A DNA stretch of 40,475 nucleotides, from positions 1 to 40,475 of IMG/VR virus record IMGVR_UViG_3300032273_000072; one strand, written 5' to 3'. This stretch comes from a virus. The notes beneath the pieces were generated by a model. It saw only the letters and a list, made by a program, of their open reading frames with translations. It was not told where the DNA came from and made no database searches. This document shows positions 15,292 through 22,274 of the stretch, piece by piece; positions within the stretch are counted from its first letter, which is position 1, and each line of letters opens with the position of its first letter. The position numbers and the translations under genes are program-made.

Positions 15292-15764
15292 GCCTATTAA
15301 CAAAAATCACGGATGTTGTTGGTGGTTCATTATTTGGTTCGGTCAAAGAGTTGATAACGGATTACTTTCCACCGGATATGTCCCCTGAAAAGAAAGCAGA
15401 GCTGCAGCGAAAAATCGATGAAATGGAATTTAAGAAGCAGATAGCCATTCTTGAAGCTGCTGCTGATGCAGAAAAAACACTAAATCAGCGTATTGCTGAG
15501 CAAGAGGGGACAGCAAGTGATTTAAAGCAATTGCCAATCGTGGGAAGGATAGTGCTCTTTCTTCGTGGTTTGCAGCGTCCTATGTGGGGGTTCTTTGTTA
15601 TGTACCTTGATTTTGAGTGGTTCACGAAAGCTCCAACATACACTGAGCAACAACAATCGGCGTTAATCGTGATTAATCTGTTGGTTCTTGGATTCTTATT
15701 TGGAGAGAGGACGATAACGAACTTAAAGCCGCTGATTGTAGAAGTATTCGGTAGGGGAAGATAA
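15288..15764 (+). CDS. Holin, 3TM (GTA-holin) family
   Basis: A 158-aa protein with a polar, helical N-terminal half (PPDMSPEKKAELQRKIDEMEFKKQIAILEAAADAEKTLNQRIAEQE) and hydrophobic segments around LPIVGRIVLFLRGLQRPMWGFFVMYLDF and SALIVINLLVLGFLFGERTI. The LRGLQRPMWGF motif between segments is typical of the Holin_3TMs family. It would permeabilise the inner membrane and let the amidase out. Translationally coupled to the amidase gene. Confidence 0.85.
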   Translation: MSLLTKITDVVGGSLFGSVKELITDYFPPDMSPEKKAELQRKIDEMEFKKQIAILEAAADAEKTLNQRIAEQEGTASDLKQLPIVGRIVLFLRGLQRPMWGFFVMYLDFEWFTKAPTYTEQQQSALIVINLLVLGFLFGERTITNLKPLIVEVFGRGR

Positions 15765-15780
15765 GTAGAATAATTGAAAG

Positions 15781-15818
15781 CTGGTGGGCTAAGGAGTGAC
15801 TATCCTCCAGTTTTTTTA
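15781..15818 (+). terminator. Probable terminator after the lysis genes
   Basis: Interrupted stem CTGG...AGGA / TCCTCCAG followed by seven T. The stem is imperfect, so confidence is moderate. Confidence 0.55.
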
Positions 15819-16073
15819 CTTCATCCATTTAACTTTCCATTATGTATATTACCTCCTTCAAAATACCCTCAGACTAAATTCCAATTTTCCACAAGGATAT
15901 GCTTAAACCGGCACGAAGAGCTTGCGCATTATTCATCTGTGTTTTTAAACAGTATATGAAGTATTTTATGCTTCCTTTGTCAAACTGACCTCCAAAAAAT
16001 CGCTTCAATCATTGATATATGAACGAAAAAAGTTCAAATTAGACAAACTGTTAGTTAATAAGTATTGGTTAGC
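15819..16073. other. Non-coding spacer before the cassette array
   Basis: No convincing ORF; AT-rich. It ends at the box GTTATGT, the presumed left boundary of the cassette block. No integron integrase gene or clear attI is visible here. Confidence 0.4.
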
Positions 16074-16080
16074 GTTATGT
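16074..16080 (+). repeat. Integron crossover box at left edge of array
   Basis: GTTATGT preceded by GC, identical to the terminal box of the attC sites at 16986 and 20842. No left arm (R'') can be paired with it, so it may be a secondary insertion site or the remnant of a site. It would be the joining point of the first plus-orientation cassette. Confidence 0.45.
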
Positions 16081-16160
16081 GTTTGATTTATTGAAGAGTT
16101 TAGATGTGCTACATTGAACTGAAGTTTAATAACTGTATGAAAATAGAGTGAAAATCAATC

Positions 16161-16523
16161 ATGGAACTCCTTTTTGAATCTACAAAAAGCTTTGAAAAAG
16201 AGCTATCAAAATTTTCTGGTAGCACTAAGAATAAAATAGTAGAAAAATTGAATTGTTATTGCTCTCTACTGGAATCTGAGGATAAATCACTATTCTATAA
16301 AAATGCATATCAGCCAATTAGGTTTAAAGGCCGTTCTGACTCTAGCCTTTATGCGTTAAAAATTGATCGAGATATTAGAATTATATTAACAGTTGATGAA
16401 GATCCAATTTTTGAACAGATAATTATTACGTTATTGCATGTTGTTCGCCATTCTTCTTTGGATAAAGTTTTTAAAGGTATCGCGGAGTCTTTATACCAGC
16501 AACGATTAAATGGTGACGACTAA
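16161..16523 (+). CDS. RelE/ParE-like toxin candidate
   Basis: A 120-aa protein with the RelE/ParE layout: STKSFEKELSKFSGSTKNKIVEKL (opening strand and helices), RFKGRSDSSLYALKIDRDIRIILTVDEDPIFEQIIITLLHVVRHSSLDKVF (central strands with basic residues). Such proteins cut ribosome-bound mRNA or poison gyrase. It is the first gene of a cassette and overlaps the next gene by one base (TAATG). No HTH antitoxin is next to it, which is unusual for this family. Confidence 0.7.
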   Translation: MELLFESTKSFEKELSKFSGSTKNKIVEKLNCYCSLLESEDKSLFYKNAYQPIRFKGRSDSSLYALKIDRDIRIILTVDEDPIFEQIIITLLHVVRHSSLDKVFKGIAESLYQQRLNGDD

Positions 16524-16864
16524 TGGCTGAAATTAAAATGTTGCTTGACGAATTTGGTATTATTCATGAGGCAAACAAAATCCTTACCGATAACGATTTG
16601 AAGCTGAAGTTCTTATCATCTCTTGCTGAATTAGAGGACAATTCCTGTCATTGCAATCGTCATTATCCTTTAACACGGCTTCATCGTGTAACTGGGCAAA
16701 AAAAAGCCATCTACCGAGCAGATATAGACAAAATATCAGGCTGGAGGCTTCATCTTCAGTTTGATAGCAAAACTAAAGCTTTAGTTCTTAAAGATATTAT
16801 CGAAGGTCAAAAACATGATGCTGTCGAAAAAGTAATAAAATCCAAGAAAGGTCGGTATGTCTAA
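16523..16864 (+). CDS. RelE-superfamily-like second cassette gene
   Basis: A 113-aa protein whose middle and end (LTRLHRVTGQKKAIYRADIDKISGWRLHLQFDSKTKALVLKDIIEGQKHDAVEKVIKSKKGRYV) also follow the RelE-type strand pattern with basic residues and a terminal KSKKGRY. No DNA-binding fold is seen, so it does not look like a standard antitoxin. The stop lies two bases before the attC left box, completing the cassette. It could be a partner that neutralises the first protein by pairing, or a second toxin. Confidence 0.6.
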   Translation: MAEIKMLLDEFGIIHEANKILTDNDLKLKFLSSLAELEDNSCHCNRHYPLTRLHRVTGQKKAIYRADIDKISGWRLHLQFDSKTKALVLKDIIEGQKHDAVEKVIKSKKGRYV

Positions 16865-16866
16865 AC

Positions 16867-16992
16867 ACATAACAAAGCGTTTAAGACTGATTCCCAACGC
16901 TTGGCATTTTAATTTCAAGTCGAATTTTGTGTTACGGTGTAATGGTTTAGGTTAGGTGTTGGCGTTGTTCACTACTTAACGCGGCGTTATGT
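16867..16992 (+). repeat. Integron attC site
   Basis: A 126-bp site. Left box ACATAAC (16867-16873) and right box GTTATGT (16986-16992) are exact complements; arms AAGCGTTTAAG and CTTAACGCGGC pair with few mismatches; inner strings CAACGCTTGGCATT and TTGGCGTTG are those of Vibrio-type chromosomal integron repeats. A second site of the same length and high similarity lies at 20723. Crossover would be between G16986 and T16987. Confidence 0.92.
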
Positions 16993-17027
16993 GCTACTTG
17001 TCTTGATTACTTATATTTAACGGAAAA

Positions 17028-17252
17028 ATGATGGATAACATTAAGAGGTCAAATTTGCTTCTAGCTTTGGCTGAAGTGGTTCAAGATATTGAAGTAATAG
17101 AAAAAATCGAGGGCTGTTCTGGTCGCTTATCGAGTGAAGAGTTAGAAAATTTAGAACGCTTAATCCTCAATAAAGTGATGTCGTATCGTGCTCATGATAA
17201 GTGGCCACCCCAAATTAGTTCGATAACAGAAGTAATGAATTTCGATAGTTAA
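17028..17252 (+). CDS. Unknown 74-aa cassette protein
   Basis: A small acidic helical protein (RSNLLLALAEVVQDIEVIEKIEGC ... SSEELENLERLILNKVMSYRAHDKWPPQISSI). The Met-Met start at 17028/17031 lies 36 bases after the crossover box of the preceding attC, and the gene ends 33 bases before the next, the normal dimensions of a one-gene cassette. No recognised family or motif. Confidence 0.65.
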   Translation: MMDNIKRSNLLLALAEVVQDIEVIEKIEGCSGRLSSEELENLERLILNKVMSYRAHDKWPPQISSITEVMNFDS

Positions 17253-17284
17253 AAATTCATTCGCTCTGAGAGTTTGAACTACGC

Positions 17285-17400
17285 ACATAACAAATACATC
17301 AACACAATTTGCTACATTCGGCATTGTAGTTTTGTCTTTAGTTTCAGTGATTACGGCAGTAAAATTCAGCTTAATCTGTATTGTAGCAAACGTGTTATGC
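17285..17400 (+). repeat. Integron attC site, diverged type
   Basis: A 116-bp site with ACATAAC (17285-17291) and GTTATGC (17394-17400) as outer boxes and inner arms TTTGCTACATT / TTGTAGCAAAC. Centre sequence differs from the two 126-bp sites, so this cassette has a different origin. It ends the 74-aa gene cassette. Confidence 0.82.
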
Positions 17401-17403
17401 AGC

Positions 17404-17430
17404 CAAAAAAGGGGCTTATAGCCCCTCTTT
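17404..17430 (-). terminator. Terminator of the antisense cassette genes
   Basis: On the minus strand GGGGCT-ATA-AGCCCC followed by six T, five bases downstream of the stop of the 309-aa gene. It also lies just behind the attC at 17285-17400. Confidence 0.85.
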
Positions 17431-17434
17431 AATA

Positions 17435-18364
17435 TTAGCTGTTATCTTTTTCGATTATCTTATTTATTAAGCTTGTACTAATGAATGATGCAAGAGATAA
17501 ACTTGATAGTGAAAGAGAAGACTCTCTAACTTTTGACTCCCATAGATCCAAGTTTATATCATCTTGGTCTTTATAAGTAACTGATAGGTAGTTTGAAAGT
17601 CTATTTTTCACATTGTAACTATCTGTTTTTGGGCTGTTTTTAATATCAATAGCACCACTTAAACATCTTTTGAATACATAGAAATCAGCATCATGCTTAT
17701 TTATTGACTCAGGAAATATTTCTGATTCAAGATTATTAGACATTAATTCAGATATGTATGTAAAATTTGATATGTTATTGTGCTTTTCATAGGCGTAATT
17801 GACGATATCCTTGACCAAGCTATCAAAGCTATCACTTTTATGGCTGATAAAAAGTTTCTGAATAGTTAAATGTTGTCTGTTTATATCAACAGGGCAATTA
17901 TTTGATTGTTGCTTAACTTTAACTTCATTATCTGTTAAATAATGTTGCATTACATTTGATAGAGTCTGGCGTAGTAAATAGTCTTTATCATTCAAGTCAT
18001 CAAGGTACTCAGGTTCTGATAAAGAACAAAATTTGTGTGCTGCTTTATAAAAATACGGAATGTGTACATATTCGTTGACGCTTTGTTTTAAAAAACGGCT
18101 CATGTATGATCTATCACCAAAAATGTGACTTCTTCGATCAAACTTAGCACAATAAACAGCATTGCTTCCTACACTATAAAACTCTTCAACGCCACCTTCA
18201 TAGCTATCCAAGTGTTCTAAGTAAACAGGTTCAAAACCTTTAATAGTATCGTTATCAATTATTTGTACGTATAAATTGCCATCATTCTCAAATACAGGGG
18301 TACTAAAACCAAACTTCGAAGATGATGGCGCAATGAAACCATAAACTCTATATGCATTTGACAT
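17435..18364 (-). CDS. Unknown 309-aa protein, second gene of antisense cassette
   Basis: I do not recognise this protein. The N-terminal 100 residues look beta-rich (YRVYGFIAPSSSKFGFSTPVFENDGNLYVQIID), the middle is helical with polar stretches (LRQTLSNVMQHYLTDNEVKVKQQ) and the end is serine/leucine-rich (RESSLSLSSLSLASFISTSLINKII). No membrane span, signal peptide or catalytic motif is obvious. Its ATG overlaps the stop of the upstream gene by one base, so both proteins are made together and probably act together. Two-gene antisense cassettes with their own transcription are typical of toxin-antitoxin or defence cargo. Confidence 0.7.
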   Translation of the reverse strand: MSNAYRVYGFIAPSSSKFGFSTPVFENDGNLYVQIIDNDTIKGFEPVYLEHLDSYEGGVEEFYSVGSNAVYCAKFDRRSHIFGDRSYMSRFLKQSVNEYVHIPYFYKAAHKFCSLSEPEYLDDLNDKDYLLRQTLSNVMQHYLTDNEVKVKQQSNNCPVDINRQHLTIQKLFISHKSDSFDSLVKDIVNYAYEKHNNISNFTYISELMSNNLESEIFPESINKHDADFYVFKRCLSGAIDIKNSPKTDSYNVKNRLSNYLSVTYKDQDDINLDLWESKVRESSLSLSSLSLASFISTSLINKIIEKDNS

Positions 18365-19161
18365 TAGATAACCCCCGTGTCTGATAGATACTCTGAAGCT
18401 TTATTTAAAATAACACTTGTCGTTGAACTCGGCGAAGACCGGTAAACTTCATAAGTGATTGGGTCGATATTGTAATCAATTAACAGCTGTGTTACTGACT
18501 CATCTCCTAACATCTCAGATGGCATAATAATCGCTTTTACAGAACCATTTGTAATATCCAGTGGACCATCACTTTGTACTTCGATTGTAGTGCACCTATC
18601 ATCAACTTGAGCTAGTCCTTTGTTGTTTATTATGTGTACAATTGACTGAAGTTCAGCTGCAAGGGGAGGGAGGTCGTCTGAGCTTAGAGTAGCTTTGCCT
18701 TTATAGTAATTACTGTTGTTAGTGTATATGTATTCAACAAACTTCTTGATAAAATCAAAGTTAGGTTTAAATTCAAACTGACTCATTTCTAGCTTGGATA
18801 CTACATGTTGCTGGTATAAAGCTGCATCGAAAGCCCCTGTATCAAAAGGGTATGCCCGTTTAAAACTAGATATTCCGGCTGGTTCAATAATGAAGCATAC
18901 AGGGAATAGCTGGATCATCCCTGTACAGTCTTCTCTTTTTAGTCTGTATGCTGGTCGACCGTAGAAATAGTACGCTAGATTTTCATTAAAGACACTGCAG
19001 TGTGTTGTCGCTATTTGCTTAGAATCAATGATTCCACGAAAGCCAATACCATCACACGTATGCATTAGCGGAATCAAGTTAAGAGTACTTTGCTGTCCGT
19101 CTATGTGTTCTCTATATCTCATTGAATTATCTATAATAGTATTTTTTTGCCAGTGTATCAT
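18364..19161 (-). CDS. Unknown 265-aa protein, first gene of antisense cassette
   Basis: The conserved-looking start LIPLMHTCDGIGFRGIIDSKQIATTHCSVFNENLAYYFYGRPAYRL, then LFPVCFIIEPAGISSFKRAYPFDTGAF, vaguely recalls the opening of ADP-ribosyltransferase-fold enzymes (LxHxT ... I ... G/S-x-I/L), but I cannot name a family. The remainder is mixed. The frame is open up to 19185, inside the attC; the ATG at 19161 keeps the gene outside the left box of that site, and a third ATG at 19122 is possible. None has a good ribosome site. It is coupled to the next gene through a one-base overlap. Confidence 0.65.
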   Translation of the reverse strand: MIHWQKNTIIDNSMRYREHIDGQQSTLNLIPLMHTCDGIGFRGIIDSKQIATTHCSVFNENLAYYFYGRPAYRLKREDCTGMIQLFPVCFIIEPAGISSFKRAYPFDTGAFDAALYQQHVVSKLEMSQFEFKPNFDFIKKFVEYIYTNNSNYYKGKATLSSDDLPPLAAELQSIVHIINNKGLAQVDDRCTTIEVQSDGPLDITNGSVKAIIMPSEMLGDESVTQLLIDYNIDPITYEVYRSSPSSTTSVILNKASEYLSDTGVI

Positions 19162-19167
19162 TTGGCA

Positions 19168-19270
19168 ACATAACAAAGCAATCAAGGTGATACGTTACAC
19201 TCGGCGGTTTTGGTTCGGGGTTCGGTGCGCTTTACTAGTTTAGTGGGTGTACACCTTATTGCAGGTGCTG
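19168..19270 (+). repeat. attC site with decayed right box
   Basis: ACATAAC (19168-19174) opens the site; arms GCAATCAAGGTGATAC and TGTACACCTTATTGC pair; the core ACTCGGCGGTTTTGG matches that at 6640. After the right arm the expected GTTRRRY is replaced by GGTGCTG, so this end may no longer recombine or was lost when the next element joined. Confidence 0.65.
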
Positions 19271-19273
19271 GGT

Positions 19274-19504
19274 AATCCCCACAAAATCATGAATGATTCC
19301 CACCAATTGGTTTATTATATGTGTTGATTTACTTTGCTCATGGTATTGATTGTCCGAAGGTTAGTGTAATGTTTGAACATAAAGTAACGTGCTTTTGAAT
19401 TTTTGTATTTGGAGCGAATCCATTAGATTTGTAGACAAGCTTTGTGTCTACTTATTGAACTACAAAGGTATTTTGTGGGGATTCGCAAGTTGCAGGCGTT
19501 AGGT
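19274..19504 (+). repeat. Long inverted repeat ending in an integron crossover box
   Basis: AATCCCCACAAAAT (19274-19287) and its exact complement ATTTTGTGGGGATT (19470-19483) enclose 182 bases with no ORF, including a second hairpin GTAGACA / TGTCTAC. Behind the right arm comes GCAGGCGTTAGGT; GTTAGGT (19498-19504) has the form of an attC right box and stands 17 bases before the abiH remnant. Either an attC with an enlarged loop or a small non-coding cassette. Confidence 0.5.
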
Positions 19505-19521
19505 GTAGCTAGGAGGTAATT

Positions 19522-20388
19522 ATCAGCACCCTTTATATAATTGGAAATGGGTTTGATCTTTGGCACTGACTATCAACAAGTTATCGTGATTTCTATGTGT
19601 TTGCTAAATCTACTCTTGATGACATAGAGAGTCACTATTCATTCGACTTGCGGAATCATGAGCCTTGGCATGATTTTGAAAATGCGCTTGGTGATTTTGA
19701 TCCTGATTCATTTTTAGATTTTCATAATGAAGTTGATGTTACCTCTGATCACTTTAAACCAAAGGATATTTATGGTCTAGAGGATGAGATTACTCAGCAA
19801 GCTGATTTACATGTTTCAGGCATTCAAGAGGCTTTTGGTGATTGGGTAAATCAAATTGAAGTTAACCATGCACTACCGAAAATGTCTTTTCTCTTAAATT
19901 CACAATTTATCACATTCAATTACACGTCAACTATTCAATCAGTTTATAACATTGAAAAATCAAGGGTTCTACATATCCACGGTAGTGTTGATTCATATGA
20001 TGAATTAGTTTTTGGTCATGGTAAAGAAATAGTAAAACAGCCCGAATTCGATGAGAATGGTGAAAGCACAGGTTCAATATTTTCAGAGGCTGAGGGCAAT
20101 GCAATGTATCCCCTCGTTGCGTTGCAAAAACCAGTACAAGATGTTTTGAATCGACATGAAGACTACTTTTGTCAGCTCAGTGATATAAATGAAATTATCA
20201 TAATCGGACACTCTTTAAATAGTATTGACTGGCCTTATTTCACTAAGATTGCAGGTATTGCTGTTGGTGCTGAATGGAAAGTCGTGTATTACGCGGAAGA
20301 AGAAGAAAATGAATATTTTGAAAGCCTAGTTGAGTGTGGTGTACCAGAAGAAAATATAGTGACTTTGGAATATAGTGACCTTGTCTAA
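19522..20388 (+). pseudogene. abiH-like abortive infection gene, disrupted
   Basis: Behind GGAGGT the frame begins ATC-AGC-ACC and reads STLYIIGNGFDLWH, then TGA (19567-19569), then LSTSYRDFYVFAKSTLDDIESHYSFDLRNHEPWHDFENALGDFD. The GNGFDL-x-H-GLPTSY type opening, the W-x-DFE-x-ALG part and the later FNYTSTIQSVYN ... HIHGSVDSYDELVFGHG ... IIIGHSLNSIDWPYF belong to AbiH proteins. Two point changes (a lost ATG and a glycine codon turned to TGA) suffice to explain the break. The rest, 264 codons, is open and well conserved, so inactivation is recent; a shortened protein from GTG 19597 would lack the conserved nucleotide-binding-like start. Confidence 0.8.
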
Positions 20389-20395
20389 ACCGTAT

Positions 20396-20437
20396 ACTTA
20401 ACAAGCAATTTTAGTCCGTTTAATGTAGGCGTTATAA
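20396..20437 (+). repeat. Truncated attC-like site
   Basis: ACTTAAC (20396-20402) and GTTATAA (20431-20437) with GGC before the latter, only 42 bases apart. Too short for a normal attC (usually about 57 or more), so probably shortened by an internal deletion. It lies eight bases behind the abiH stop and about 20 before the next cassette gene, as expected for cassette structure. Confidence 0.5.
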
Positions 20438-20456
20438 CTAATAGGGAGTTTTCAGT

Positions 20457-20699
20457 ATGGGAAGCTTTGCTCGACATCATGATGAATTAAAAAATGCCTT
20501 TGTAGATTTGAAGGGTTGTACGCTAACAACGAAGTCGATAAAGGAAGTTATAGGGCTAAAAATTCCTGAGTTTGATGAAAATTGGATTTATCCATCTGAT
20601 CACTGTATCAATCACATATGCAAAGGTGCTTGTGATTGTGCTGAAACTTCGAATGCTATATTTGAGCGTCTAGATAGAGGCTTGTATAAGGTCGTATAG
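20457..20699 (+). CDS. 80-aa cassette protein with Cys-rich C-terminus
   Basis: Start ATG 20457 with AGGGAG upstream. The protein begins with a helical part (FARHHDELKNAFVDLKGCTLTTKSIKEVIGLKIPEF) that could be a winged helix, and ends in WIYPSDHCINHICKGACDCAETSNAIFERLDRGLYKVV. The PSDHC-x-N pattern followed by a '-RG-Y-V' end resembles small proteins common in Vibrio integron cassettes and nuclease-associated wHTH tails; I cannot name a function. The cluster of four Cys (HC, IC, AC, DC) might bind metal. An attC follows 23 bases after the stop. Confidence 0.6.
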   Translation: MGSFARHHDELKNAFVDLKGCTLTTKSIKEVIGLKIPEFDENWIYPSDHCINHICKGACDCAETSNAIFERLDRGLYKVV

Positions 20700-20722
20700 A
20701 GACGGATGTTTTGGAAATTTAG

Positions 20723-20848
20723 TTATAACAAGGCGTTTAAGACAGATCCCCAACGCTTGGCATTCTCAGTTCAAGGTTAATTTGTGTTTACGGTGCAATG
20801 ATTTAGGTTAAGTGGAGGCGTTGCTTATTACTTAACGCGGGGTTATGT
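20723..20848 (+). repeat. Integron attC site, right edge of array
   Basis: A 126-bp site nearly collinear with that at 16867: TTATAAC (20723-20729), GGCGTTTAAGACAGATCC, CAACGCTTGGCATT, TTTACGGTG, GATTTAGGTTAAGTGG, CTTAACGCGGGGTTATGT. Right box GTTATGT is 20842-20848. No further attC is seen to the right, so this appears to be the end of the array. Confidence 0.9.
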
Positions 20849-20892
20849 ATTAGTGGATTGCTCTCCCTATCTAACGTAAAAAAATGGATTCA

Positions 20893-21783
20893 TTATAGGT
20901 GTATTTTTAACCTAATATTTTGGAGTATTTTAATCACTTGTCTACTGTCGGGCATCGGGAACTGACTTACTCTAACAACGGCAGATTTTGCAGCACGACA
21001 GAGGTAATTGTCTCCTCTTTCTTCTGAGGTACTAAGTACCAAGCCATTGGCTAATAAGTGGAATGTTAAAATACACTCTTTACCAACGAAGTTTTGGTCA
21101 GCAGGCAAGTTTTGTTGGATCATTTGGGCATAAATTGCACTATAACGAGACACCTCATCATCGACAAATGCCCCTCTAGGGTCAGTTCTGGTTTCTACTT
21201 CGTTAAATCGAGGCGGTGGGGTAGTATTCTTAATTTTTAAATTTAGCTTTTCGATCTCTTTATCTACTCGATCTTGTGGTGTGGTATATCTCTGTTCGTT
21301 AATAATTCCTTTTATATTTCCACACGAACTTACTGCGCTTGCAAAAGATTTATTGAAGCCTATACCAGAAAAGTGCCAATCCGTTACCGTCGAGCCTGCA
21401 GATCTAACTCTGATAATGAAGCTATTCGATTTTTGAATTCTACTTATCAGGTATGGTACATCTTCACTGTTTAAAAAAAGGCTGTCGTTAGTGCCCTCAT
21501 CAAAAAATACTTTTAAGGCTGTATCATTGTCAGCTCTAAATTTACCTAGTTTAGTACCACCAACATAGCCAATATCATTAATATATAACTGATAGTTCCC
21601 ACCAGAACATAGCGCGAAAATTTTAGCTTTGTATGGCCAGCTTTCGTTTTTCGCAATAGAAAAAGCTCCAACAGTATTGGAATCATCCATCACATCTGTT
21701 GACTGGTATGCATTCCAATCATCACTTGCAAGTGAGTAGGAAGAGGCAGTTAGCAACCAGAGCGTCAATAAATATTTAAACAT
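20893..21783 (-). CDS. Secreted protein with TolA-like C-terminal domain
   Basis: A 296-aa protein with a Sec signal peptide (MFKYLLTLWLLTASSYSLAS, cleavage after SLA-S). Residues 22-160 resemble small secreted beta domains such as VasI-like ones (WPYKAKIFALCSGGNYQLYINDIGYVGG ... FSGIGFNKSFASAVSSCG, with two Cys likely disulfide-bonded). A charged linker (about 170-210) is followed by YAQMIQQNLPADQNFVGKECILTFHLLANGLVLSTSEERGDNYLCRAAKSAVVRVSQFPMP, which follows the pattern of TolA domain III, including both Cys. TolA III is the receptor of filamentous phages and colicins, so a periplasmic mimic could affect envelope function or exclude other phages (inference). Last gene of a three-gene minus-strand operon. 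Confidence 0.75.
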   Translation of the reverse strand: MFKYLLTLWLLTASSYSLASDDWNAYQSTDVMDDSNTVGAFSIAKNESWPYKAKIFALCSGGNYQLYINDIGYVGGTKLGKFRADNDTALKVFFDEGTNDSLFLNSEDVPYLISRIQKSNSFIIRVRSAGSTVTDWHFSGIGFNKSFASAVSSCGNIKGIINEQRYTTPQDRVDKEIEKLNLKIKNTTPPPRFNEVETRTDPRGAFVDDEVSRYSAIYAQMIQQNLPADQNFVGKECILTFHLLANGLVLSTSEERGDNYLCRAAKSAVVRVSQFPMPDSRQVIKILQNIRLKIHL

Positions 21784-22063
21784 TTCCCGATTCCTTATCT
21801 GATCTCGTTATTTTTTTAATGGAAAGTCGGAAGCTTGTAGGGGGAGGTATTGCGGTATTCATCATTTCAGTGAACGTGGCATAAGCATCTGTTACAAAAA
21901 CCTCAGAGTCTACAAAGACAATAAAGGTTTGATCCTTGTAGTTCATTGGGCATCGAGTGTAGACGGCTCGGTAACCATGCTTAAGGCGTGAGAGCTCCTT
22001 TAATGCTGAATCACCAGTAAGTACACGAAAGCTAAGGTCCCTATCTATAAAGAAGTGCTTCAT
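21776..22063 (-). CDS. Unknown 95-aa protein
   Basis: From the ATG at 22063 (GGGAG seven bases upstream) to 21776, overlapping the start of the TolA-like gene by eight bases. Predicted soluble alpha/beta (MKHFFIDRDLSFRVLTGDSALKELSRLKHGYRAVYTRC ... QTFIVFVDSEVFVTDAYATFTEMMNTAI), with no signal peptide. Lies between two exported proteins in the same operon. The frame is open further upstream but a longer protein would overlap the lipoprotein gene. No family recognised. Confidence 0.65.
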   Translation of the reverse strand: MKHFFIDRDLSFRVLTGDSALKELSRLKHGYRAVYTRCPMNYKDQTFIVFVDSEVFVTDAYATFTEMMNTAIPPPTSFRLSIKKITRSDKESGNV

Positions 22064-22076
22064 TATTTGCTCCCTG

Positions 22077-22274
22077 TTAAAACGTTTGTTCGACACTGAT
22101 CCCTTGAGCTTCCCCCTCTTGATGTACATCAACGTCTAATCCGCCACCTGATTCGTAGTGACCATGATAGGGTTCATCATCATTGGTCGGTTGTTTGGCA
22201 GGAGAGGAATCACCATGTCCCCCTGCACAACCTGCTAACGCAAAAACGAATCCAATCAGGATTAATTTAGCCAT
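22077..22274 (-). CDS. Small lipoprotein
   Basis: A 65-aa protein with a lipoprotein signal: KLILIGFVFALAGC-AG, where LAGC is the lipobox and C16 the lipidated residue. The mature part is short, polar and His/Gly/Asp-rich (GGHGDSSPAKQPTNDDEPYHGHYESGGGLDVDVHQEGEA). AAGGA precedes the ATG. A Gly after the lipidated Ala-Gly start, not Asp, suggests the outer membrane. Phage-encoded lipoproteins often block re-infection by masking receptors or injection; that role is inferred only. Confidence 0.7.
   Translation of the reverse strand: MAKLILIGFVFALAGCAGGHGDSSPAKQPTNDDEPYHGHYESGGGLDVDVHQEGEAQGISVEQTF

What the first reader, a model, noticed from the sequence alone, without database searches (positions are those of the whole stretch)
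20893..22274. Phage-encoded envelope operon with a TolA domain III mimic
A lipoprotein, a 95-aa protein and a secreted protein joining a VasI-like domain to a TolA-type C-terminal domain form one minus-strand operon next to the packaging genes. TolA III is the docking site for filamentous phages and group A colicins, so a free periplasmic copy could act as decoy or disturb the Tol system in the lysogen.
Basis: partly seen in the sequence, partly recalled or inferred. Interest (0 to 1): 0.65.

Follow-up and report, generated by a model that had tools for sequence, protein, structure and literature searches.

The report
Prophage-borne decoy of host TolA domain
A virus living in the DNA of a Photobacterium carries an exported copy of the end of its host's TolA protein, the docking site that rival filamentous phages and bacterial toxins use to get in; similar copies sit on many plasmids, prophages and integrons, so this may be an overlooked, widespread way of blocking such invaders.

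Summary
Three minus-strand genes lie at exactly 20893-22274: a lipoprotein, a 95-aa protein (no signal peptide, so not an obvious envelope protein) and a secreted 296-aa protein whose residues 195-294 are a true TolA domain III (PF06519, E 3.5e-22; model matches V. cholerae TolA-III bound to CTXphi pIII, Z 16.9). The domain is 65-68% identical to chromosomal TolA-III of the P. profundum clade, which also carries sister prophages and filamentous prophages. It has stayed intact since capture (dN/dS about 0.2). 'VasI-like' for the N-domain is only weakly supported. The gene lies in a variable defence hotspot: sister prophages hold Lamassu, NsnABC or RES-Xre there; this one holds AbiH plus integron cassettes. 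Beyond the window, free TolA-III proteins, mostly lipoproteins, occur in lambdoid prophages (882/5,426 E. coli genomes), about 750 plasmids including bacteriocin plasmids (there once paired with a secreted TonB-C protein), and Vibrio integron cassettes. Best reading: a translocon decoy blocking filamentous phages and Tol-dependent bacteriocins. No function was tested, and the two-domain fusion was seen once only. The main rival is deliberate disturbance of Tol-Pal.

The parts
22077..22274 (-). 65-aa lipoprotein (lipobox LAGC, Ala at +2), first gene of the operon
   Evidence: conserved (92-98% aa) in sister prophages; pairwise w 0.09 against L203
21776..22063 (-). 95-aa protein, no signal peptide seen; conserved partner of the lipoprotein
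   Evidence: 84-97% identical homologues in prophages of G001, G020, G033; last codons differ from relatives at the junction with the TolA-III gene
20893..21783 (-). 296-aa secreted two-domain protein carrying a TolA domain III; overlaps the 95-aa gene by 8 nt
21727..21783 (-). signal peptide (residues 1-19, probable cleavage SLA|SD)
   Evidence: read from the sequence; no signal-peptide predictor available
21304..21726 (-). N-terminal domain (residues 20-160), weakly phrog_1848/VasI-like
   Evidence: phrog_1848 E 1.1e-4; direct VasI comparison not significant; AF2 pLDDT 44
21202..21303 (-). charged and proline-containing linker (residues 161-194)
   Evidence: sequence; one predicted helix at low confidence
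20893..21201 (-). TolA domain III copy (residues 195-296)
   Evidence: PF06519 3.5e-22; 65-68% identical to P. profundum-clade TolA; AF2 pLDDT about 70-85, 4g7x_B Z 16.9
15766..21803 (.). exchangeable defence/moron region; homology to sister prophages stops at both edges
   Evidence: other prophages hold Lamassu, NsnABC plus methyltransferase, or RES-Xre here
19597..20388 (+). AbiH-family anti-phage gene in the same region
   Evidence: PF14253 5.4e-38; PADLOC AbiH 5.7e-24
20725..20848 (+). integron attC site immediately beyond the end of the TolA-III gene
   Evidence: 82% identical to 16869-16992; aligns with Vibrio integron attC sites
16869..16992 (+). integron attC site

Best explanation
The prophage carries a lysogeny cargo gene whose product is exported to the periplasm and presents a copy of the host's TolA domain III that is not coupled to the TolQ-TolR motor. 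Invaders that must engage TolA-III to cross the envelope (filamentous phages through pIII, and Tol-dependent bacteriocins through their translocation domains) bind the copy instead and are stalled, so the lysogen resists such superinfection and tolerates such toxins. Shown: the domain's identity and fold, its host origin, export signals, lack of TolA domains I and II, location in a defence hotspot, filamentous prophages in the same host clade, and the same stand-alone domain on plasmids, prophages and integrons. Inferred: expression in the lysogen, binding to pIII or bacteriocins, and the protective effect.
For: The domain is close to the nearest hosts' TolA (65-68%, next group 55-60%), and sister prophages with the 95-aa gene occur only in that clade among the genomes searched. 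It keeps dN/dS about 0.2 against host tolA and both conserved cysteines. The model fits TolA-III taken from complexes with CTXphi pIII, phage IF1 g3p and colicin A. The locus is a defence hotspot: AbiH here; Lamassu, NsnABC or RES-Xre in sister prophages. P. profundum G001 has four Zot-family loci and G020 two, and G001 has filamentous prophages with coat, pIII-like, pVI-like, pI and secretin genes. Parallel cases: mEp460 TolA-III lipoprotein, 60.5% identical to E. coli TolA, in 882/5,426 E. coli genomes; TolA-III lipoproteins on bacteriocin plasmids, once overlapping a secreted TonB_C protein; lipoprotein cassettes in Vibrio integrons. Literature: pIII, colicin N and TolB share one TolA-III strand (PMC4339652); sequestering TolA with periplasmic pIII-N1 lowers phage uptake about 4 logs (PMC10424213).
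Against: No binding, expression or phenotype was tested. The fusion was seen in one phage only. No credible promoter was found: promoter-like hits equal chance. Secreted TolAIII at high level makes the outer membrane leaky (PMC6195910), so a decoy would cost the host unless expressed weakly. The role of the N-domain is unknown. The free domain should also bind TolB. The plasmid and integron cases may serve other purposes.
Confidence: 0.5

Rival explanations
1. Dominant-negative modulator of Tol-Pal: the free TolA-III binds TolB, weakens the TolA-TolB link, loosens the outer membrane and increases vesicle release, which would help lysis or shed receptors. Reduced entry of Tol-dependent agents would be a by-product.
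For: TolB binds the same TolA-III strand as pIII and colicin N (PMC4339652). Secreted TolAIII is used to make E. coli leak periplasmic protein (PMC6195910). The mEp460 TolA-III gene lies between the Q antiterminator and the lysis genes.
Against: In the window the operon is on the strand opposite to the late genes and sits in a defence hotspot. Carriage by bacteriocin plasmids and integron cassettes does not suggest a lysis role.
Confidence: 0.22
2. Targeting module: TolA-III only brings the N-terminal domain to TolB-Pal at the outer membrane or division site, and the N-domain is the active part, for example blocking an incoming phage or a T6SS attack.
For: Two-domain architecture with a linker. 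The N-domain has a weak link to the phrog_1848/VasI group.
Against: Most TolA-III proteins on other mobile elements have no second domain, only a signal peptide or lipid anchor. The N-domain link to VasI fails a direct test.
Confidence: 0.13
3. Selectively neutral or unrelated cargo: a passenger gene captured near the integron cassettes, or a gene with some other envelope role.
For: It sits directly beside integron attC sites and was seen in only one phage.
Against: The frame is intact with dN/dS about 0.2 over a dS of about 1. It is joined to a conserved phage gene. Parallel capture of the same domain by other mobile elements is unlikely for neutral cargo.
Confidence: 0.13

Closest known systems
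TolA (tolQRAB-pal), domain III, PF06519
   Same: Same domain by sequence and predicted fold, 65-68% identical to the host clade's TolA-III; conserved cysteines kept
   Different: No inner-membrane helix (domain I) and no long helical domain II; signal peptide and different N-domain; not in the tol operon; prophage-borne
'TolA protein' of Escherichia phage mEp460 (LR597641) and its prophage relatives, cf. phrog_5772
   Same: Phage-borne, exported, stand-alone TolA-III close to its own host's TolA (60.5%)
   Different: Lipoprotein without second domain; separate origin (groups with E. coli TolA); lies between gene Q and the lysis genes
TolA-III lipoproteins of bacteriocin and other plasmids (for example NZ_CP070146, NZ_CP053194, NZ_CP101544), annotated tolA
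   Same: Mobile, exported, motor-free TolA-III; beside an Exc2-family lipoprotein or a TonB-C protein
   Different: Plasmid-borne, enterobacterial, about 30-45% identical to each other and about 30% to ours
Superinfection-exclusion envelope proteins of tailed phages (such as Cor and T5 Llp; from memory)
   Same: Lysogen- or infection-expressed envelope proteins blocking entry of competitors
   Different: Those block an outer-membrane receptor; this would copy the periplasmic import protein
VasI (PF11319)
   Same: N-domain shares a weak hit to phrog_1848, some members of which are VasI
   Different: No Pfam VasI hit; direct profile comparison not significant; no T6SS genes nearby

Membership tests
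TolA domain III (PF06519) | Sequence match above the curated cut-off | tested here: met
   78.9 bits against cut-off 25
TolA domain III (PF06519) | TolA-III fold | tested here: met
   AF2 model against 4g7x_B Z 16.9, 98 residues, 1.8 A; other TolA-III entries Z 11-15; TonB domains mostly 5-8
Full-length TolA protein | N-terminal inner-membrane helix and long helical domain II before domain III | tested here: not met
   Signal peptide, about 140-aa N-domain and a short linker instead; genuine TolA in L001 shows the normal layout
Full-length TolA protein | Gene within tolQ-tolR-tolA-tolB-pal | tested here: not met
   Flanked by a 95-aa gene and attC/AbiH
VasI (PF11319) | Profile match of the N-domain | tested here: inconclusive
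   No Pfam hit; phrog_1848 1.1e-4; hhalign probability 0.6%, within shuffled controls
VasI (PF11319) | T6SS gene neighbourhood | tested here: not met
   No T6SS gene beside it; genuine VasI genes lie between a vasH-like regulator and a TssA-like gene
Superinfection-exclusion or translocon-decoy factor | Gene lies in exchangeable prophage defence cargo | tested here: met
Superinfection-exclusion or translocon-decoy factor | Blocks entry of phages or bacteriocins; binds pIII or a translocation domain | not testable with these tools
   needs experiment
Integron attC site (20725-20848, 16869-16992) | attC-type sequence shared with a cassette array | tested here: met
   Alignment with attC sites following Vibrio TolA-III cassettes; hairpin energy itself not significant

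The most novel reading that the evidence does not exclude
Exported, motor-free copies of the TolA domain III, and at least once a TonB C-terminal copy beside it, form a general class of translocon decoys on mobile elements. Phages, bacteriocin plasmids and integrons captured the domain more than once, from their own host group where this could be told, and use it to shut out filamentous phages and Tol- or Ton-dependent bacteriocins. They are hidden in databases under the name 'cell envelope integrity protein TolA'.
Probability: 0.4. Interest if true: 0.8.

Novelty: new variant of a known kind. Interest (0 to 1): 0.62.

Why it matters
Exclusion proteins known to me block outer-membrane receptors or DNA entry. 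A mimic of the periplasmic import protein itself would be a different tactic, and could block every invader that uses the Tol route, phage and toxin alike. The domain is easy to assay with long-established tools (M13/fd, colicins A, N and E, TolB binding). If it works, hundreds of plasmid and prophage genes now annotated as housekeeping tolA are defence genes. It would also bear on why bacteriocin plasmids carry envelope exclusion genes.

Tried and rejected
(1) Another copy of the two-domain fusion: none in IMG/VR, GenBank phages, PLSDB or about 330 Vibrionaceae genomes. (2) N-domain as a true VasI: direct comparison failed; an earlier high-probability comparison is void because one sequence was in both profiles. 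(3) N-domain structure: single-sequence AF2 model unusable, pLDDT 44; no alignable viral relatives found. (4) Rfam hits in the region: none. (5) Promoters: scan not above chance. (6) attC by hairpin energy: not significant, but accepted on sequence alignment. (7) The idea that the TolA-III gene is itself an integron cassette: the attC next to its stop faces the other strand and no attC lies beyond its start, so not supported. (8) Prior report of a TolA-III decoy on mobile elements: none found in the open-access library, which lacks most subscription papers.

Full report
WHAT IS THERE. Three minus-strand ORFs occupy 20893-22274 as described. Gene 1 (22077-22274) encodes a 65-aa lipoprotein with lipobox LAGC. 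Gene 2 (21776-22063) encodes a 95-aa protein with no visible signal peptide. Gene 3 (20893-21783) encodes a 296-aa protein with a signal peptide, an N-domain of about 140 aa, a linker and a C-terminal TolA domain III. Genes 1 and 2 are 13 nt apart; genes 2 and 3 overlap by 8 nt. The window is a temperate tailed-phage record (integrase at 1-1275; HNH, terminase, portal and major head protein from 22666 on).

THE C-TERMINAL DOMAIN. PF06519 matches residues 205-293 at E 3.5e-22, 79 bits against a cut-off of 25. NCBIfam tolA_full matches at 7.9e-21. The AlphaFold model of residues 200-296 has block means of pLDDT about 69-85. It superposes on V. cholerae TolA-III from its complex with the CTXphi pIII domain (4g7x_B, Z 16.9, 98 residues, 1.8 A), and on E. 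coli TolA-III from complexes with colicin A (3qdr, Z 15.4) and phage IF1 g3p (2x9a, Z 13.3). TonB domains mostly score 5-8.

WHERE IT CAME FROM. The best genome matches are genuine TolA proteins in tolQRAB-pal operons of Photobacterium (L001: tolQ, tolR, tolA, tolB, pal in order). Identity is 65-68% for the P. profundum clade and mostly 50-60% for the rest of the genus. The tree puts the phage domain with Photobacterium/Salinivibrio TolA (support 100/99) but does not resolve its place inside. Nucleotide comparison with P. profundum tolA gives dS about 1.0, dN 0.23, ratio 0.22, so the copy has been kept as a folded domain; part of this constraint is TolA's own. The 95-aa protein occurs in G001 (P. 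profundum), G020 and G033 only, among 326 Vibrionaceae genomes searched. The host group is therefore the same as the source of the domain.

THE N-DOMAIN. The only direct hit is phrog_1848 at 1.1e-4. Members of that profile family in Vibrionaceae include genuine T6SS VasI proteins. A clean test of the N-domain against a VasI profile failed: hhalign probability 0.6%, within shuffled controls. An earlier comparison shared a sequence between both profiles and must be ignored. The single-sequence model has pLDDT 44. 'VasI-like' is therefore a lead, not a result.

THE SITE. Nucleotide comparison with sister prophages L136, L202, L203 and L204 shows about 91-97% identity outside the region (89% on the right side in L204). 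Homology ends sharply at window 15755-15766 on the left and 21804-21805 on the right, inside the last codons of the 95-aa gene. L138 and L207 lack the lipoprotein and 95-aa gene at this place and rejoin at about 22566. Between these borders the sister prophages carry different cargo: Lamassu LmuA/LmuB plus an outer-membrane beta-barrel protein (L136, L203); NsnABC plus a DNA methyltransferase (L138); RES-Xre toxin-antitoxin (L202, and by sequence likeness L204). The window carries AbiH (PADLOC 5.7e-24) and the TolA-III gene. This is a defence hotspot, and the TolA-III gene has been joined to the end of a conserved two-gene unit.

INTEGRON CASSETTES. Two 124-nt direct repeats (16869-16992, 20725-20848; 82% identical) align with the attC sites that follow Vibrio integron cassettes. 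The core CAACGCNTGGCR occurs twice on the plus strand against 0.01 expected. The cassettes read on the plus strand; the TolA-III gene is on the other strand just beyond the last attC, so it is beside the array rather than a normal cassette.

THE SAME DOMAIN ON OTHER MOBILE ELEMENTS. Phage mEp460 encodes a 142-aa lipoprotein with TolA-III, 60.5% identical to E. coli TolA. Its gene is in 882 of 5,426 complete E. coli genomes and 40 IMG/VR loci. Small bacteriocin plasmids carry TolA-III lipoproteins beside an Exc2-family lipoprotein. A search with one of these finds 750 of 72,556 plasmids, 672 from Klebsiella; 300 of the 750 cover at least 80% of the query. On 10-kb Klebsiella bacteriocin plasmids the TolA-III lipoprotein gene overlaps a gene for a secreted TonB C-terminal domain protein (PF03544, 8.9e-11). 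One Vibrionaceae genome has three TolA-III lipoprotein genes within 46 kb, each followed by attC, and another has one. Enterobacterial mobile copies group with E. coli TolA (100/99) and the window copy with Photobacterium TolA (100/99), so the domain was captured at least twice (long branches make the finer order unsafe). Stand-alone secreted TolA-III proteins also occur in Photobacterium chromosomes outside obvious prophages.

THE THREAT. Filamentous phages appear common in this genus: the Zot-family assembly ATPase is found in 20 of 52 genomes, with four loci in P. profundum G001, the highest count, and two in G020. Two G001 loci hold coat protein (PF19199 5.5e-23), a large pIII-like protein, a pVI-like protein, pI and a secretin. 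That these phages use TolA is assumed from the Ff and CTXphi models.

HOW IT PROBABLY WORKS. In E. coli, pIII, colicin N and TolB bind the same edge strand of TolA-III, and colicin A binds the opposite side (PMC4339652, PMC7391070). Sequestering TolA with pIII-N1 lowers phage uptake about 4 logs (PMC10424213). A free TolA-III not tied to TolQ-TolR could capture the invader before it meets real TolA. The cost is competition for TolB: secreted TolAIII is used to make E. coli leak (PMC6195910). Hence the main rival, deliberate Tol-Pal disturbance. The defence hotspot, the bacteriocin-plasmid setting and the TolA-III/TonB-C pair favour the decoy; they do not prove it.

LIMITS. No experiment was possible. 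The fusion is known from one phage. No promoter was identified. Absence of prior reports is limited to an open-access library.

Noticed in passing
window 15766-20848: Prophage has taken up integron gene cassettes: two attC sites and plus-strand cassette genes including AbiH, a DUF7225-like protein and a pair of small ORFs (16161-16864).
   Followed up: partly
L221 2541-3274 (NZ_CP101544): Klebsiella bacteriocin plasmid encodes a TolA-III lipoprotein overlapping a secreted TonB C-terminal domain protein: possible paired Tol and Ton decoys.
   Followed up: partly
L261, L262, L263 (G158), L260 (G273): TolA-III lipoproteins as Vibrionaceae integron cassettes, three near-identical copies within 46 kb in one genome.
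   Followed up: partly
L136 2454-7540; L138 2317-7419; L202 8118-9646: Sister prophages carry Lamassu plus an outer-membrane beta-barrel gene, NsnABC plus a DNA methyltransferase, and RES-Xre at the same site: a prophage defence hotspot of the P. profundum clade.
   Followed up: partly
L209 1492-3486: pIII-like protein of a P. profundum filamentous prophage has a collagen-like triple-helix region (PF01391, 5e-8) where Ff pIII has glycine-rich linkers.
   Followed up: no
L048 2338-2706; L050 4272-4640: Conserved 122-aa secreted TolA-III protein in Photobacterium chromosomes between a DUF1275-like membrane protein and a MerR-like/methyltransferase gene, outside any obvious prophage.
   Followed up: no
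window 17435-19185: Minus-strand pair of 309-aa and 273-aa proteins (overlapping start and stop) in the defence region with no confident family hit; candidate new two-gene defence system.
   Followed up: no
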